Below, one piece after another: positions 879-54,262 of a stretch of 64,000 nucleotides of DNA (its first letter is position 1; the number at the start of each line of letters is the position of its first letter). Made by a program: the position numbers and the translations under genes. Below the pieces are notes generated by a model. It worked only from the letters and a program-made list of their open reading frames with translations. It did no database searches and had not been told where the DNA came from. Source of the stretch: Hydractinia symbiolongicarpus. Taxonomy: Eukaryota > Cnidaria > Hydrozoa > Anthoathecata > Hydractiniidae. The stretch lies in NCBI RefSeq assembly GCF_029227915.1, contig NC_079878.1, forward strand, positions 436,001-500,000, written 5' to 3'.

Positions 879-3800
879 CTCGTTGTCTGAAGATAACGAA
901 TCCCTCTCAAAATGAACTCTTGATGGACTGGATGAATATTTTTTATGGGTTTTAGATGCCATTCTTTTTTGTTGATCATCACTTGATAATTCACTTGATG
1001 TGTCCTGGTTATACAAAATTTATATAGGTGTGATGCACAATATCAAACAAAAAAGGATTCCAAAAAATTAGCCTTTGCAGTTTGAATTGCTGTTAACAAT
1101 TAATTTGTATATACTAGTAAAAGGAGTTTGCACTGGATGTGTAAATTATTTTAGCATTTATGGCATTGTTTCAAAACTATAGAAGCATCTTGCTATAGAT
1201 ACTGTAGAGCAACTGAAAAAATAAACCTGACAAAAATCTTACATGAAATGTTTCTTTTTTGTCTTTACGAAGTGACCTCGAACTTCTAAGCTTTGATTCA
1301 TTGAACCTTTTGTCGCTGGATAACTTATGGAGATCAATATGCAGCTAAATCATAAAAATTGACAGCATAATATTCAAATAAATGCCATGGCTGTTATCAC
1401 ACTTTCTAACTAGACATTCATTTCACAGTGCATTTATTAGATAGTCAATAAGCCTGTATAAAAATCCACTTAGCAGAAAAAAATGAAAAAAGATTTTCTT
1501 TCAAATTTTGATGACATCATCACCCCTCTGTTCTAAGAGGATGACACTGTAGATGTACTGGACACTTTAGATGACACTAGTTATTTCTACCTGTTTCTAA
1601 GTTATTTAGCATCCAACTTAAATTCACTGCAATAGCTTCACAAAGTTTAATAATATTACTCACTAGTCGATAAAGCCTGGTTTTGATAAACAGTTAATGA
1701 GATATAAGAGTTTCAAAATTTTGCTGACATATTAGCAAAGACACAAAAATTTTTTTTGGAAATATATGCATACATGTTGCCTTTATCGTATAGATCTTAA
1801 AACGCTAATCAAGAAAATCCATAGAATTATGTATCATTGACAAACAGTTGCAGAGATATTGAGGCTTAAAGTTTTTGTGATGACGTCATCAGCCTGTTTA
1901 TTCTGAATAGGATTTGGGGTCCCAGGTTTGGGAAACTTACCCAAATTGGTCCCAGGTATTTTCCTAATTACGCACATGGTAGAAAATGACTGACAGCACC
2001 ACCTTGTATTTTAAGATATTTGGCCTCGAAGCTTTAAATGCACTGTAATGGCCTCATTAATTTAATATAAGATATTGACGTTAAATTAACGTTAATCAAC
2101 ATCATTCATCATTCTTGGCTTAACCTCCGTTTTCCATGCTAGCATGGGTTGGACGGGGTATATTAATGAACCTCTTCCAATCTGATCTAGACTGTGTTAG
2201 ATCTAAACTCAACTTCCTCTGTATCAAGTCTGTCCTTATAACCTCCTGCCAAGTCTTTCTCGGTCTGCCTCTGGGCTTTGCCCCAGGAACTATCAAGTCT
2301 CTACCTTTTCTTACCCAATTATCCTCCTCCATTCTTTCCAAGTGCACCAGCCAATTCAATGTTCTTATCTGGATAACATCTTTAATTCTACAGATACTTA
2401 GCCTGCTTCTTAGCTCATCTAAACTCTTTCTGTCTCTCAGACTGGCATTACACATCCACCTAACCATTCTCAATCATTCCTTTCTAAACTGTCAAGGTCT
2501 TCCTGCGTCACTGCCCATGTTTCACTTAACTTGTTCACATAACACTTCTTACACAGGCCTCATACAACCTACCTTTTACCTCAATTGACAGGACTCTGCT
2601 AGTCAACAAAGGAAATAACTCTCTGAACGTTTTCCAAGCAGAACCTATCCTGCAAGTAACATTTCTCCAACACCCCCTTTCACTGCCCAACATATCACTT
2701 AAGTAACAGAAGTTCTCAACTATCTCTAACAAGCCACTCTTGTACATCATTAAAGCTGGAAATACTTCATTCTCTATAATCTCACCTTTGCAACGCTTGC
2801 ATACAAACTGAATGTCAGCTCTTAACTTTCCACTAATATTACCGCACTTCTTGTGTACCCAATGCTTGCAAGTCTGACAAAAAATTGAGTTACTACCAAC
2901 CCCTTTCCTGCAAACTCCACAAGGCCACTTTCCAACTACAAGGTCACACTTGGCTGCAATACTACTAATCATGACTTTAGACTTTGCTGTGTTTACCTTT
3001 AGCCCTTTCTCTTCTAGTCCTTTCTTCCACTTCTCAAACTTTTCAACTAATTCTTCCATCGACTCTGCTATGAGAACCAAATCATCTGCATACAATAACT
3101 CCCATGGACAACCTGTTCTGAACTCCATCAACAGCGCTTCTAAGACTAGAACAAACAACAAAGGACTAAGTACAGAACCCTGATGTACACCAACATTTAC
3201 ACTAAATTCATCACTAAGTGAATCGTTAATACTGACACGACTTCTAGCATTGCTGTACATAGACTGTACACTGTACCATCGTAACTAGCCACTCATCCAC
3301 ACCTAATTTTCTCATAGCCCACCAAATAACTTTACATGGCACTCTATCAAAAGCTTTCTCTAAATCTACAAAGGCAAAATAGAGATTCTTTCTCTTTCCT
3401 AAATAAACAAAACCAAATTGCATCTTATCTATATCAATCCTTTCTCTAAATAACTTACCAATCACTCTTTCAATAACTTTCATTACTTGATCAACCAACT
3501 TCAAACCTCTATAGTTACCCCTTTCTAATGCATCACCTTTGCCCTTGAAACAATTCACTATTACACTCGGAATAGCACCATCCTTTATAATCTGGTTAGC
3601 AAGACTTGTAATATACTAGCCATCCTCAACCTAGTGTTATCTACCTTGTGGTGTGATAGCTGGGTAACGGTCTGACAATGCTCACACCTGACATCTGTCC
3701 TACCATGCGCGATTAATAACGTCGCTTAATAAGTTGATTAGCATTTGGAACATGCATTTTTTAGCAACTTCAAAGAAAAATGAACACATCCACTTTGCCT

Positions 3801-46764: not shown

Positions 46765-48830
46765 GTTTTTTATTTTAACTTTATCCTTTAAAGCTTTCGT
46801 CACCTTAGCGTTCCTTTGCTCTCGATATTTACTAAGAGATTAGAAAAGCCATTGGTATATAAAAACAATGTTTAATGACCCAAAACCATCTCGTGGTTAC
46901 GCATATTAACTTTCTTTGTTCTGTCCTCACTACAAAAGAGTATTGGATTTAATCTTTCTGAATAGTGTTAATACAATGGTTGCCTACGTTACTATAATAA
47001 ATTGTATACCAAATTTGGTATTTTTCTTTCTTAACCCATTTTACCTCGATATGTTATAAAAATTCAATAACATTTTAGTTTGAAATTGCAAGATTATATA
47101 ACAAAGTATTTTCAAACACCTGGAAAGAGATAATTGGTGTATTCTTTGCACTTCTAAATCTTTCTTCATTTACTGCTAATATTATTATAACAGAAGACTG
47201 TGCTACAACACAAGGGTCTTAAATACGTCCGATTTGCCAAGAAATTGAATCAATAAACATCGCAATAGGACTCTGCAGACATCTTTCCAAATTTAAACAA
47301 CAAATTACACGCCAACAACAATCTAATGAAAAATTCTGATCGTGTGAACACAGCCATATTCAGCACATACGATTTTTATTATACCTCTAATAATTTATTT
47401 AATTAAAAAGAAAAAAATCATGAGTACACGTGATCCATGCTAATTTTCCATGTGACCAACCTGTAATGTACTTACAAGAAATCTGGATCCTTGAAACTCG
47501 TATTGGGTCAAACAAATTCTCTTTTTCATTTTAGTGTATTTTTATATATTTCATTTCAGGTAGAGCCACATTTTTGTCATAGCTGCACAACAAATTGCAG
47601 AACTGTAATATCTAATGTCAACATAAACATCGTTTATAAATTCGTCAGGAAATATTCTATTTAATAAACAATTCATTCTTACAATGTCAGAAGGTTGTAG
47701 GCATAGCGATAAATCAAGCTATTAGCGCGACAATAAAGCTAGATTTACACTAAAAATTTCCCAATGAATGGACATTATCCCATTAGGGCTATGCCTTCTA
47801 CGGGCTTCTCAGCTACCTCCCTATCCATCTCCCTAACTTAATGATTTAGACATGATAATTTATATGCACATAACCCTTGATAAAATAACTAATATGACAA
47901 AAGGATTGATGACGTAATTGCATTTTTTAAGGTCATTAGCTATTTTTCAAAATGCGCGATTTTTACATTCTCGTCTTTTGCAGTTCGTTTTAAGACAAAA
48001 CGAGTTCACTTCGGAGGGTGCGTCGTTAAGAAAGCTTTCTGGATGTTTGTGGAACACCACATTTAATATTCTGAACTGCCAGATATTGTCTTAGGAGGCC
48101 TTAAAGTATCATCGAGCTATTGCAAAGGATTTAACATCGAAGGAGGGGCAAGAAAGCTCTCAAAAATACGAAAATGTTTGCTATGGGCGTTGCTATGCAC
48201 ATATTTGCGGTAGGTTGGAAAAAGTGGCAGGATGCGCAATAAAAACCTAAATTTGTCATATGCACTACCTGCCATGGTATTCTAAGATGAATTTGTTGTC
48301 AGAAAACAGCTAAATAACAATTCTTAAAATTTAGAATTTTTTTAGGGGAACCGCCTTAATGAAGGGCAGGGTTTTGGTGCTTCATTTACAGAGGAAAAAT
48401 TCCACAGGCTGGCAATATTGTAGAACCACTCCTGCAAGCTCAATAACTTAATAATAACATTCGTATATATCTTTTGTTCAAACTGGTAGCTCAATTTCCA
48501 TTTCGTTGCAAGGACGCTCCAGAAAGGTGATGACAAGGAGATAAATCATGGGGGAAAATGTGAGAATATCTGTCATGCACAACTCTTATCTTTTTCGCGG
48601 GCTGAAGACTAGTTTAGAAAAATAGCTCCAGACATTTATTTGGACATATTAATAACATCAACCAGAACGCCTTTTTAGACATGGTCAGCAGAAAATTTTT
48701 ACCAATCAGAGTGGTGTTGTATATTTTCCCCAGACCTTTTACACAAATCGACTGGCAAAATAATGCCTATGGTAGGTAATAAAAATACACCATACTAAAT
48801 AGAAAACTTGGGAAAAAAGCACAAAATAGC
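46765..48830. other. Intronic DNA without recognised genes
   Basis: Left flank of the composite mobile element. No supported ORF. Confidence 0.35.
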
Positions 48831-48832
48831 TA

Positions 48833-49036
48833 CAATCCCGGTCAAAATATATTGGCAGTAAGCTACAAAAAGTGCAGTATAATCCTTTCTTACCCCCCCC
48901 CCCCCATTATCAAGGTTTGGAAACGCGTTAGCACAACTTTTTAACATTGATACTGGGGGAAAGGGGGCTTTGTACTTATCAAGCTCTTGCTACACATGAA
49001 AAAAGGGTTTACTGCCATTATTTTTGACCGGGATTG
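48833..49036 (+). repeat. Left end unit of the composite element
   Basis: 204 bp, closely matching 52503-52700 in the same orientation. It has its own inverted ends (CAATCCCGGTCAAAATATAT and, reversed, CAATCCCGGTCAAAAATAAT, both leading to TGGCAGTA), a C-run near 48892 and an inner inverted pair (TTATCAAGGTT and AACATTGATA). TA precedes it; TCTGAA follows. Confidence 0.9.
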
Positions 49037-49308
49037 TCTGAATTTCAAGAAAAAATTTGACAAGAGTTGTGGCCTTTTTCTTCCTAGAGAAAGTCAAAAA
49101 GGCCTCTGTAACTCGAATTTACACGTGGACTTGACCCTAGTTTCTATGAGACTACTATTCTGTAACGAATCCAGTGAAATGATAAGCAAAATTAGGCGCC
49201 AAAATTCGAAGAAAACGAAAGTGAAATCAAATATTATTCAACACAAGAAATAGGTTCTCATCCTAACCTAAAATAACGTATAAAATAAAGTATAAAACCT
49301 AATATAGA

Positions 49309-50394
49309 ATGGCAAACAATATAAATAGCGATGAGGAGCTTGAGAACAAAGACAGTTGCAGAACGTATATGTTAACGTACTCCAAAGCAGATCTAAGTGT
49401 TGTTCCAAATCAAAAGGCGTTCACTGACATCGTATTAGAGGCATTTTCCATAGGGACGCCTAAGGCTAATGTCGAACACTGGGCTACTTGTACAGAGGTT
49501 CATGCAGATGGTGAGCATCAACACCACATGGCATTGAAACTGAGTGGAACCCGTCGTTGGCGCCCCATTCATCAGCACATTTACAAGACACGTAAGATTT
49601 CTGTGAACTTCTCATCCAAAAACTATGGGTACTTGGCTGCATACCGTTATGTTTGCAAAGATAAACTGTTTGAGTCAGTTTTGCACAGCAAAAATCACCC
49701 AAACTTAAAGAATGCCAAATCACCAGTGTCAAAGAGGGGTTTCACTCGTTTTTCCCAAAATTCAAAGGCACTCTCAGAACTCATTTTTGTAACTTGGAAA
49801 ATGCACAGTGCCCCTAAAGCGATCGAGCGACAGCAAAAATGTAGACTTGACGTTGTGGTAGAAAAATCAAACACAGCCTGCGTAGACGGATGCAACGGCA
49901 CTTGGTTGGTGTGTGCAAGGCAAGTGTTGCGAAACAATAGCATCAATATATACGTTTTTGCTGATGCTCTGCGAGAATGTCTGAAGCGTGGTCGCAAGAA
50001 AAATAACAATATCCTGTTAACAGGACCAACAAATTGTGGAAAATCATTCTTGTTGAACCCTGTAGAACTAATTTTCTATTGTTTTGTTAATCCTGCAAGC
50101 AGCAAGTACGCATGGGTTGGCCTCGATGAATGTGAACTCGCCTACCTTAATGATTTTAGGTGGTCAGCGGAATTATTCGCATGGAACAAATTTCTCCTTC
50201 TGTTGGAAGGTCAGACTGTTCACCTGCCAAGGCCTAAAAACCAGTTTGCCACTGACATGGTTATAGGCAGGGACAATTCTATGCCAATTTTGGCTACAAG
50301 CAAAGGTTCAATTGAACATGTTGGAAAATATAACCAGAGATCAACGCGAAACAGATATGATGAGTTCAAGGTGGCGAGAATTCAAATTCATTGA
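49309..50394 (+). CDS. Rep-like protein: HUH endonuclease plus superfamily 3 helicase, C terminus frameshifted
   Basis: Predicted role: nicks one strand at an origin and unwinds DNA for rolling-circle replication. Seen in 361 codons: motif I YMLTYSKAD (20-28), HUH-like EHQHH (69-73), motif III YVCK (114-117, Tyr114 the candidate nucleophile), Walker A GPTNCGKS (239-246), Walker B WVGLDE (269-274), motif C PILATS (326-331). This order is that of CRESS-DNA virus and plasmid Reps; related copies are known in animal genomes. Odd: after about 50345 the annotated frame loses character, while another frame keeps a coding-like segment with a CPHC motif to a stop at 50477-50479. One frame change has therefore replaced the last part of the protein. 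It converges on the transposase remnant. It could be an endogenised viral gene or a transposon gene; no capsid gene was seen. Confidence 0.8.
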   Translation: MANNINSDEELENKDSCRTYMLTYSKADLSVVPNQKAFTDIVLEAFSIGTPKANVEHWATCTEVHADGEHQHHMALKLSGTRRWRPIHQHIYKTRKISVNFSSKNYGYLAAYRYVCKDKLFESVLHSKNHPNLKNAKSPVSKRGFTRFSQNSKALSELIFVTWKMHSAPKAIERQQKCRLDVVVEKSNTACVDGCNGTWLVCARQVLRNNSINIYVFADALRECLKRGRKKNNNILLTGPTNCGKSFLLNPVELIFYCFVNPASSKYAWVGLDECELAYLNDFRWSAELFAWNKFLLLLEGQTVHLPRPKNQFATDMVIGRDNSMPILATSKGSIEHVGKYNQRSTRNRYDEFKVARIQIH

Positions 50395-50531
50395 AGAAAT
50401 CCCAAAGGAATCGATGAAAGACTTAGAACCTTGTCCGCACTGTTTTTGCACCCTGGTTATTCAAGGCATGGATGCGTAAAATGTATAATATATAAAAACT
50501 ATGTTCGTATTTAAAAGTTATTATATTCCAT

Positions 50532-50737
50532 GCGTCACAAGTGCGTCACATATGCGTCACAAGCTATATAGTACTATGCTGTAAAAGAATTTAATGCGTC
50601 ACATGCGTCACATCCAAAGTTTTAAAAGAATAGTATATATATATTAAAAAAAAATGTTGTGACGCATGTGACGCATACATTTAACAGTTAAACACATGCA
50701 AAAAACCGAGTGACGCATTAGTGACGCACTGTGACGC
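50532..50737. promoter_or_regulatory. Ten-site mirror array (iterons), candidate replication origin
   Basis: Seen: GCGTCAC starts at 50532, 50543, 50554, 50596 and 50605; its complement GTGACGC starts at 50659, 50668, 50710, 50721 and 50731. Spacings (11, 11, 42, 9 against 9, 42, 11, 10) mirror around about 50635, an AT-rich core containing TATATATATATT. Spacer sequences between sites differ on the two sides while the sites are kept. Known: Rep proteins bind iterated short motifs near their origin. TGACGCA also resembles bZIP (CRE/AP-1) half sites, the main alternative. No canonical CRESS nonanucleotide was seen in the core. Confidence 0.75.
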
Positions 50738-50768
50738 ATAGAATTTACAGCTAAATATCTTTAAAAAC

Positions 50769-51881
50769 TTAATATTTTGTTCTGGCACCTTTGTGCTTTT
50801 GCACAAGTGCCAACCTTTTTGGCATTGATGATATCAGGTTGTCAATAGTTTGTTTTGGAATACCTGTCAACATGGTTTGCTTGATTCTGTTCACAAACTG
50901 TTCATATGTTTCTGCTGTGATGTTCTGTTTCATTGCGTTTCTTTTAATTTTGTCCTAACCAGGTGGAAAAAATTTTCTATTGGGTTTAGATCCGGGGAGC
51001 GTGCCGGTATTTTGACCATGACATAACCTTTGCGCTCCCAGGCCACCCTCGCTGCTTTTGAATTTTGTTTAGGACATCCATCCTGAAGAAACTTGTACGG
51101 TAGCGCAGACTCGCTCTTCGCGAAGGCAGTGGGGAATTGTTCATCAATAACATACCTGGCAAAATTGTCGCCAGTGATTTTCCAGTCATGATGGTGACAC
51201 ATGACAACCCCATTACCAAAACTAATCGCAACGAAAAAATTTGCCATCTTACCCCCACTGCCTTCTTTTCGTCCTTTTGTTGTGATAGAAAGACCTTCGT
51301 TGGGCCTACGCCAGGTCATACTTGATACTGTTCTCGCATCTCCAGCCAGGTTGGGCTTAAATGCAAATCCAATCCCATCCAAATAAAACCCAATCTCCTT
51401 AGTCCAGTACTCGGCCGGGAGATTTAACTGTTGCCTAGCAAACTTCGTGCGAATGGATTTGTCTTTCACGCTCAAAAGTCCTTTTTTCCTTGATTGACAA
51501 TACTTGTAACCATGTTTCTGCAAACAACGTCGTATGTCTGTTACTTATCTTCCAGCCGAGTCCTGCTGTCTCTTGAACTTTCTTCGAGGAGAACTGTACC
51601 CCATTCCGTCGCAATTGTGCCACAGTCCTGACAATAATTCGTTCCATACGGATAGACAACTTTCGAGGGCGACCTTGGTTTTCTTTCCATGGATCGAACG
51701 GGGCAGCGGCATCCATAGGTTTTTTTGCATGCCTGTAAATGGTCCGCTTTGCAAACAGTTTTCCATAACGCTTGACAAGCTCATAACAACTCAGACCGTT
51801 CTCCTGATGCAATATCCTCAACTTCATGGAAGTTTGTAGGTCTATTTTTTGATACTTACCCCAACTGTTTTTTGGAGACAT
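50769..51881 (-). pseudogene. Tc1-like DD34E transposase, two frameshifts
   Basis: Known role: cut-and-paste transposition at TA. Seen: ATG at 51881 (MSPKNSWGKYQK); helix-turn-helix region around LVKRYGKLFAKRTIYRH; GRPRKLS linker; catalytic residues in YLDGIGF, FLQDGCPKQ and PDLNPIENF, with 34 residues between the last two. Frame changes near 51535 and near 50953 split it. The final segment (MLTGIPKQTIDNLISSMPKR) continues in a third frame to a stop at 50769-50771. All domains and catalytic residues remain, so decay is slight and recent. It is transcribed toward the Rep-like gene with the motif array between their 3' ends. Confidence 0.9.
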
Positions 51882-52120
51882 TTTGATTTTGCGCTGGTTT
51901 TATGTTTATATATATCTTTCTAGAAAGACGAAAATAAACATGTTGTTGTTATCATTGTTTCTGTTGGCAGTTATGTACATGCAAAACAAACATAAACAAG
52001 GTCCTTTTTTCAGTTCGATCTTCCCTTACAGAGCTTAGCACTACCTTATTGGTACTAATTTTCTGAATTTTTGACTCAATATACATGTACCCTTTCATTC
52101 TTGAAAAGGTATATATATAT

Positions 52121-52185
52121 ATTTTGCGCGTAGTACTTTTCACCCAAAACATTTTGCGCGTTGCTTCTGTACTAAATTTTGCGCG
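52121..52185. repeat. Three ATTTTGCGCG motifs
   Basis: ATTTTGCGCG at 52121, 52151 and 52176 in the right subterminal part of the composite element, next to a TA run. Such subterminal repeats can be transposase-binding sites; function here is unknown. Confidence 0.5.
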
Positions 52186-52502
52186 CAAATAATTTTTTTT
52201 CGCACAACTGCGTCAAAATTAATACCCACAAAAATTAGTAACAATAACGTATTCATCTAACTACAATTTTTCACGGAATATTATAATGTCTCGCGATTAT
52301 CGAAAAATGCCCCATTCGCCTCGTCATCTATTGTTTTAGCATTTCTATTGTTTCCAATTTTAGCATGGCACAAAAAAAACAATGCTGTTACATACTTCAA
52401 AACATATATATAGTATCCACCTTTAGAATTAATTTAAAAATTAAGTCAAAAAAATTACTGCAAAAAATTGCCGAAAAAATTCTAAGTCTAAAATTTCAGA
52501 GA

Positions 52503-52700
52503 CAATCCCGGTCAAAATATATTGGCAGTAAGCTACAAAAAGTGCAGTATAATCCTTTCTTACCCCCTCTCCCCCATTATCAATGTTTGGAAACGCGTTA
52601 GCACAACTTTTGAACATTGATACTGGGGGAAAGGGGGCTTTGTACTTATCAAGCTCTTGCTACACACTCTTGCTACTGCCATTATTTTTGACCGGGATTG
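52503..52700 (+). repeat. Right end unit of the composite element
   Basis: 198 bp, direct copy of 48833-49036 with small indels (the C-run is interrupted as CCCCCTCTCCCCC, and the TACACATGAAAAAAGGG stretch is changed). TA follows at 52701-52702; the base pairs before it read GA. Confidence 0.9.
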
Positions 52701-52799
52701 TAGCAAGCTAGCCTGCTATACGTCAGATTTTTCTAAGATTTACATTCGACGTCTTTTCCAAACCTGAGCTACAGTATATGCAACTTGTAAAATGGAATA

Positions 52800-53367: not shown

Positions 53368-53592
<225 letters not shown>

Positions 53593-54068: not shown

Positions 54069-54262
54069 ATACTGAAAGAGAACTACTTTGTTCATCACTA
54101 ACATACTGCCTGGCAGTGAGCGGGATTCGATCCGCGGTGCCCATAACTGGGAGCCGCAGGCGAACCCACTACACTACGTGCGGCAAAATGTTAGTGATAA
54201 ACTAATCCCGCTCACTGCCAGGCAGTATGTTAGTGATGAACAAAGTAGTTCTCTTTCAGTAT
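54069..54262. repeat. tRNA-derived SINE in a 59-bp perfect inverted repeat
   Basis: Seen: 54069-54127 is the exact reverse complement of 54204-54262. The 76-bp loop carries a minus-strand tRNA-like body: CGCACGTAGTGTAGTGGGTT and GCGGATCGAATCCCGCTC (B-box GATCGAATC). The solo relative at 42.24 kb lacks the second arm. It is a strong hairpin if transcribed. Confidence 0.85.

What the first reader, a model, noticed from the sequence alone, without database searches (positions are those of the whole stretch)
48833..52700. Tc1-type transposon that carries a CRESS-type Rep gene
A replication initiator (HUH plus SF3 helicase) and a DD34E transposase sit convergently inside one TA-flanked, repeat-bounded 3.9-kb unit. 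Mariner transposition combined with rolling-circle replication in one element would resemble the known fusion of piggyBac with herpesvirus (Teratorn), but with a single-stranded-DNA replicon. I do not know of a described family of this kind.
Basis: partly seen in the sequence, partly recalled or inferred. Interest (0 to 1): 0.87.

Follow-up and report, generated by a model that had tools for sequence, protein, structure and literature searches.

The report
Jumping gene carrying a virus-like replication starter
In what looks like an animal genome sits a damaged copy of a mobile element that pairs a cut-and-paste transposase with a virus-type DNA replication starter; other sequences seem to carry the same pair intact, which suggests an element that can both jump and copy itself as a circle.

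Summary
Positions 48833-52700 form a TA-flanked unit with perfect 15-bp outer inverted ends, a Rep gene (+) and a DD34E Tc1-type transposase gene (-), convergent. Corrections: the ends are about 200-bp DIRECT repeats, each with its own inverted ends, as in KolobokP; the Rep joins a geminivirus/CRESS-like HUH nuclease to a parvovirus/papillomavirus-type SF3 helicase; both genes are broken here. Between them lies a 226-bp palindrome with ten copies of one octamer, 5+5, like a replication origin. The pairing recurs: 15 exact contig lengths are shared between 120 listed Rep hits and 120 listed transposase hits (shifted-length null for contigs >=3.5 kb: mean 1.2, maximum 5), distances of the two proteins correlate over 16 inferred pairs (Mantel r 0.74), and catalytic residues are kept in nearly all listed full-length relatives. 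Closest print: Liu et al. 2011 (truffle Rep-plus-transposase transposon; Hydra DENSOV_HM). I judge it a new lineage of Rep-carrying Tc1-type transposons, moved by transposase and possibly amplified as a circle; replication is inferred only. The host genome search did not complete, so ends of other copies and empty sites were not seen.

The parts
48833..52700 (.). whole element, TA on both sides
48833..49036 (+). left long terminal direct repeat (204 bp) with its own 15-bp inverted ends
52503..52700 (+). right long terminal direct repeat (198 bp), same orientation, own 15-bp inverted ends
48833..48847 (+). outer terminal inverted repeat, left
52686..52700 (-). outer terminal inverted repeat, right
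49037..52502 (.). internal region with both genes
49309..50394 (+). Rep gene (HUH nuclease + SF3 helicase), 361 codons open; internally deleted and broken near its C-terminal end (rest out of frame to about 50479)
50522..50747 (.). imperfect palindrome with 5+5 copies of TGCGTCAC/GTGACGCA; candidate replication origin
50769..51881 (-). Tc1-type DD34E transposase gene with two frame breaks; core with the DDE residues in the frame 50930-51544

Best explanation
A decayed copy of a composite-ended Tc1-type transposon: long direct repeat - internal region - long direct repeat. The internal region encodes a DD34E transposase and a replication initiator with an HUH nuclease and an AAV/papillomavirus-type helicase. 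Shown here: the anatomy, the homologies, the recurrence of the gene pair in other contigs (by exact contig length), and conserved catalytic residues in relatives. Inferred: the transposase moves the whole unit at TA sites by the outer inverted repeats; recombination between the direct repeats, or excision, gives a circle of about 3.67 kb (internal region plus one repeat); Rep binds the octamers, nicks in or near the AT-rich centre of the palindrome and amplifies the circle with host polymerases; circles return to the genome by transposase or by recombination with solo repeats. The gain would be copy number, which cut-and-paste alone does not give.
Against: No DNA of any second copy was seen; contig identity rests on equal lengths and source tags, not names, and about one of the 15 matches is expected by chance. 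For length 3874 two transposases match one Rep; I used one (P0344). No circle, nick site or replication was observed. The palindrome could be a foldback insertion. This copy is inactive. No CRESS nonanucleotide was shown. Of the 76 distinct Rep contig lengths of >=3.5 kb, 61 have no exact partner among the 120 shown of 869 transposase hits. The two gene trees agree only in part.
Confidence: 0.7

Rival explanations
1. An integrated episome: a circular Rep replicon carrying one MITE-like repeat recombined with a chromosomal copy of that repeat, so the TA flanks belong to the old repeat insertion and the transposase is a passenger or the mover of the repeat only.
For: Direct repeats at both ends, outer flanks TA but inner flanks TC/GA are what such an integration would leave; the KolobokP authors draw the same route.
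Against: The transposase recurs beside Rep in about 16 contigs of diverged sequence (inferred from lengths), four of them 15-29 kb, and both genes keep catalytic residues in the listed relatives, so it is hardly a passenger. Not exclusive of the best explanation, which contains this route as one way back into the genome.
Confidence: 0.15
2. An accidental composite: two copies of an unrelated MITE happen to flank an old virus-derived Rep and a Tc1 pseudogene.
For: Each end repeat looks like a complete MITE with its own inverted ends; this copy is decayed.
Against: Inner flanks are not TA on either side; no other copy of the repeat in 64 kb; Rep and transposase appear paired elsewhere.
Confidence: 0.07
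3. A virus (CRESS- or parvo-like) that integrates with a captured Tc1 transposase, this being a provirus.
For: Virus-type Rep fold; the first row over the whole length is AAV2 Rep68.
Against: No obvious capsid gene: besides the two genes the element's ORFs are 104 aa or shorter, most overlapping Rep or transposase (intron-split genes not excluded). Pattern-based scans found no relatives in IMG/VR and tblastn none in the phage records.
Confidence: 0.05

Closest known systems
Geminivirus-like transposon of Tuber melanosporum (Liu et al. 2011, PMC3198968; passages and section 8 read)
   Same: Rep gene plus transposase ORFs between inverted ends in a eukaryotic genome
   Different: fungal; 37-bp TIRs, no obvious TSD; Rep reported as geminivirus-like; superfamily of its transposase not stated in what I read; here TA flanks, direct-repeat ends, and a papillomavirus/parvovirus-type helicase
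DENSOV_HM of Hydra (Repbase, discussed in PMC3198968)
   Same: [quoted passage not shown] the legend of the figure that shows it lists PPV_E1_C and TIRs, but I could not see which element bears which
   Different: annotated as an integrated virus-like element; I saw no mention of a transposase; its sequence was not at hand, so it may be the same family
KolobokP (Kojima and Bao 2022, PMC9587614; abstract and passages seen)
   Same: long terminal direct repeats with their own short TIRs around an internal region with a transposase plus a second nuclease
   Different: Kolobok transposase (TTAA duplications), repeats of about 450 or 660 bp, His-Me finger nuclease instead of an HUH-helicase
Tc1/mariner elements such as Sleeping Beauty
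   Same: DD34E transposase, TA flanks; profile matches SB100X at 1.8e-14
   Different: usual Tc1 elements carry the transposase alone (recalled)
Teratorn (only the listing and abstract start of PMC10175614 seen)
   Same: piggyBac-like transposon fused with another mobile genome (herpesvirus: recalled)
   Different: 180 kb long, many genes (recalled)
Terminons of rotifers (passage in PMC5718144)
   Same: Rep-like ORFs in a transposable element
   Different: retroelements; Rep association there is discordant and transient, here largely concordant

Membership tests
Tc1/mariner (IS630-Tc1-mariner) transposon | DDE transposase of the superfamily with DD34E/D spacing | tested here: met
   PF13358 6.3e-7; the window core has D and E 34 apart by direct count on the translation; 107 of 110 full-length listed relatives have spacing 34; SB100X 1.8e-14
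Tc1/mariner (IS630-Tc1-mariner) transposon | terminal inverted repeats flanked by a TA duplication | tested here: met
   perfect 15-bp outer TIRs, TA on both sides; that TA is a duplication needs an empty site, not available
CRESS-DNA virus (Rep and capsid) | HUH nuclease with motifs I-III of the geminivirus/CRESS kind | tested here: met
   family; in the window copy motif II is altered
CRESS-DNA virus (Rep and capsid) | CRESS-type SF3 helicase | tested here: inconclusive
   helicase half ranks AAV Rep, E1 and NS1 first; a CRESS Rep (Vientovirus 9pqq) also matches, lower
CRESS-DNA virus (Rep and capsid) | capsid gene | tested here: not met
   no further single-exon ORF over 104 aa inside the element; intron-split genes not examined
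KolobokP | long terminal direct repeats with own TIRs | tested here: met
KolobokP | Kolobok transposase and TTAA target | tested here: not met
   transposase is Tc1-type, flank is TA
Helitron | Rep fused to a Pif1-type helicase, no TIRs, no target duplication | tested here: not met
   SF3 helicase and TIRs with TA flanks; the Helitron definition is recalled
DENSOV_HM-type element | sequence relationship to DENSOV_HM Rep | not tested
   its sequence was not at hand

The most novel reading that the evidence does not exclude
A widespread lineage of 'transposing replicons' in animals: Tc1-type elements that insert by transposase but multiply as extrachromosomal circles with their own HUH-SF3 initiator and a palindromic iteron origin, the long direct repeats serving to close the circle. 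Their Rep, an apparently active geminivirus-like nuclease on an AAV/papillomavirus-type helicase, would be a living intermediate between CRESS, parvovirus and papillomavirus initiators.
Probability: 0.4. Interest if true: 0.92.

Novelty: new variant of a known kind. Interest (0 to 1): 0.8.

Why it matters
Tc1/mariner elements gain copies only indirectly; an element with its own initiator and origin could decouple copy number from host replication. It also ties ssDNA-type replicons to DNA transposons in what seem to be animal genomes, offers a relative of parvovirus and papillomavirus initiators with an apparently active nuclease and no capsid gene seen, and makes a fusion of transposition and episomal replication testable in a 4-kb system.

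Tried and rejected
Rep relatives in IMG/VR contigs, by pattern scans confirmed with tblastn: none with the window's Rep or the alignment; none in GTDB genome contigs; none in phage records by tblastn of P0002. A pattern for a solo end repeat gave 0 exact matches in GTDB contigs and IMG/VR. Other copies of the ends in the window: none. No tRNA gene in the window. The contig-length test with the first transposase list (118 of 120 listed hits had a length) gave 3 shared lengths against a null mean of 1.2, reached by 14 of 120 shifts, so too weak alone; above 4500 bp it was 2 against 0.11, maximum 1. One of the three, 2766, has differing source tags (jgi and ena) and was dropped; 4582 recurs in the second list and 24186 was kept. 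The full-length transposase list gave 15. A regular-expression count of motifs misparsed some spacings and was replaced by an alignment count. Ten paper searches showed no described Tc1-plus-Rep family in the rows listed; several matched far more papers than were listed (63,932 papers, 15 listed; 3,856, 15 listed), and subscription papers and Repbase itself were not searchable. Absence of a family from the fold lists is not used as evidence.

Full report
WHAT IS THERE. The unit at 48833-52700 starts and ends with perfect 15-bp inverted repeats and has TA directly outside both ends. The ends are two direct repeats: 48833-49036 (204 bp) and 52503-52700 (198 bp), 98% identical over 165 bp without gaps and 91.8% over 207 gapped columns. 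Each repeat has the same 15-bp inverted repeat at its own two ends, so each looks like a small non-autonomous element. The inner flanks are TC and GA, not TA. BLAST shows no other copy of the repeat in the 64-kb window. GC of the element is 39.1% against 33.1% in 20 kb of flanks.

GENES. On the + strand, 49309-50394 encodes 361 codons of a Rep; Pfam finds a papillomavirus-type helicase (6.8e-7). Compared with relatives this copy lacks about 65 residues in the middle, has an altered motif II, and its C-terminal part is out of frame. On the - strand a Tc1-type transposase runs from 51881 to about 50769 with two frame breaks, the middle part in a second frame; its DDE core (DDE_3, 6.3e-7) has the second D and the E 34 residues apart by direct count. 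Both genes look dead here. No other ORF of the element exceeds 104 aa, and most of the smaller ones overlap Rep or transposase, so no capsid gene is seen; intron-split genes were not examined.

CANDIDATE ORIGIN. Between the two 3' ends lies a 226-bp imperfect palindrome (50522-50747) with ten copies of TGCGTCAC/GTGACGCA, five in each orientation around an AT-rich centre; the rest of the window holds only two more. As DNA it folds at -57.3 kcal/mol against -23.5 +/- 3.2 for 200 shuffles. Among octamers with at least three different letters, outside the TGTC microsatellite, it is the only one with ten copies in 230 bp of the window. Its place between convergent 3' ends argues against a promoter; a foldback insertion cannot be excluded.

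IS THE PAIRING REAL. The Rep search gave 464 hits, 120 listed. Two transposase searches gave 199 hits and, with a full-length profile, 869 hits, 120 listed each. The tables give the longest contig of each hit. Between the Rep list and the second transposase list 15 exact lengths are shared, all 3874 bp or longer; with the lengths shifted by 1 to 200 either way the mean was 2.2 and the maximum 6 for all lengths, 1.2 and 5 for lengths of at least 3500. So about one match may be chance. By my reading of the two tables the source tags overlap in all 15; as few tags exist this is a weak check. At length 3874 two transposases match one Rep, and I used P0344. The first transposase list shared 3 of 118 usable lengths (2766, 4582, 24186; null mean 1.2); 2766 was dropped because its source tags differ, 24186 was kept as a sixteenth pair. 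Four of the 16 contigs are 15-29 kb, the others 3.9-5.3 kb, about element size. As a rough guide, if every Rep contig held a transposase, 76 x 120/869, about 10, matches would be expected, and if every transposase contig held a Rep, 70 x 120/464, about 18; 15 were seen. The lists are ranked, not random, so this only says that frequent pairing fits. Contig identity is inferred, not seen by name.

CO-EVOLUTION AND CONSTRAINT. Across the 16 inferred pairs the distance matrices of the two proteins correlate (Mantel Pearson r 0.738, Spearman 0.662, p 0.0001 each by 9999 permutations). This can reflect co-transmission or shared host descent. In the two trees of that call one six-contig group (4582, 3874, 3914, 3895, 4422, 15303) and the pairs 16501+24186 and 3874+3914 appear in both, but the trees differ elsewhere, for example in the place of 15303 within that group. 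The 3906-bp pair is the closest of the 16 to the window for both genes, and ranks correlate (rho 0.74). Of 109 Reps of at least 430 aa (of 120 listed), motif II His are kept in 109 and 108, motif III Tyr and Lys in 109, Walker A Lys in 108; of 110 transposases of at least 340 aa (of 120), D, D, E are kept in 108, 110, 108 and the spacing is 34 in 107. A database of predicted ORFs favours intact copies, so this shows that many intact copies exist, not a rate.

WHERE IT LIVES. Pattern-based scans found no relative in IMG/VR or GTDB genomes, and tblastn none in phage records. The few listed hits that name an organism are cnidarian: Paramuricea clavata for one Rep hit (P0019) and one transposase hit (P0202), Clytia hemisphaerica for two transposase hits. 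Five transposase relatives (P0154, P0158, P0170, P0187, P0191) stop at about the same place, which suggests an intron (inference). The window has a LINE-type reverse transcriptase remnant and a long microsatellite. I take the host to be an invertebrate, perhaps a cnidarian; not shown.

COMPARISON WITH PRINT. Liu et al. 2011 (PMC3198968; [quoted passage not shown] the legend of the figure that shows it lists PPV_E1_C and TIRs. DENSOV_HM may belong to the present family. KolobokP (PMC9587614; abstract and passages) has long terminal direct repeats with own TIRs, solo repeats and multimers; its authors propose circles of one repeat plus internal region. The present element has that kind of ends on a different transposase superfamily and with a different second enzyme. 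Rotifer Terminons carry Rep-like ORFs in discordant, transient association (passage in PMC5718144). Ten searches of the open library showed no described Tc1/mariner-plus-Rep family in the rows listed.

MECHANISM. Likely: insertion at TA by the transposase acting on the outer inverted repeats; circle formation across the direct repeats; amplification from the palindrome by Rep. I put the family claim (Rep and Tc1 transposase as one lineage of mobile element) at about 0.85, circle replication at about 0.4.

LIMIT. The one search that would settle most of this, of the window's own genome, was requested 20 times and never answered (calls listed in Tried and rejected).

Noticed in passing
window 54069-54262: Foldback with 59-nt perfect inverted arms around a core that, on the - strand, resembles a tRNA-derived SINE head (A- and B-box-like stretches, judged from memory); ARAGORN calls no tRNA.
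   Followed up: partly
window 2535-3284 (-): LINE-type remnant: reverse transcriptase (RVT_1 1.4e-15) followed by a PHD finger (4.2e-7) in one frame.
   Followed up: partly
window 53368-53493: Long (TGTC)n microsatellite less than 1 kb from the element's right end.
   Followed up: no
P0154, P0158, P0170, P0187, P0191: Five transposase relatives stop at about the same residue, which suggests a conserved intron inside the transposase gene.
   Followed up: no
window 48829-48832 and 52701-52711: The target looks palindromic around the TA (AGC-TA-GC), with a further GCTAGC just downstream.
   Followed up: no
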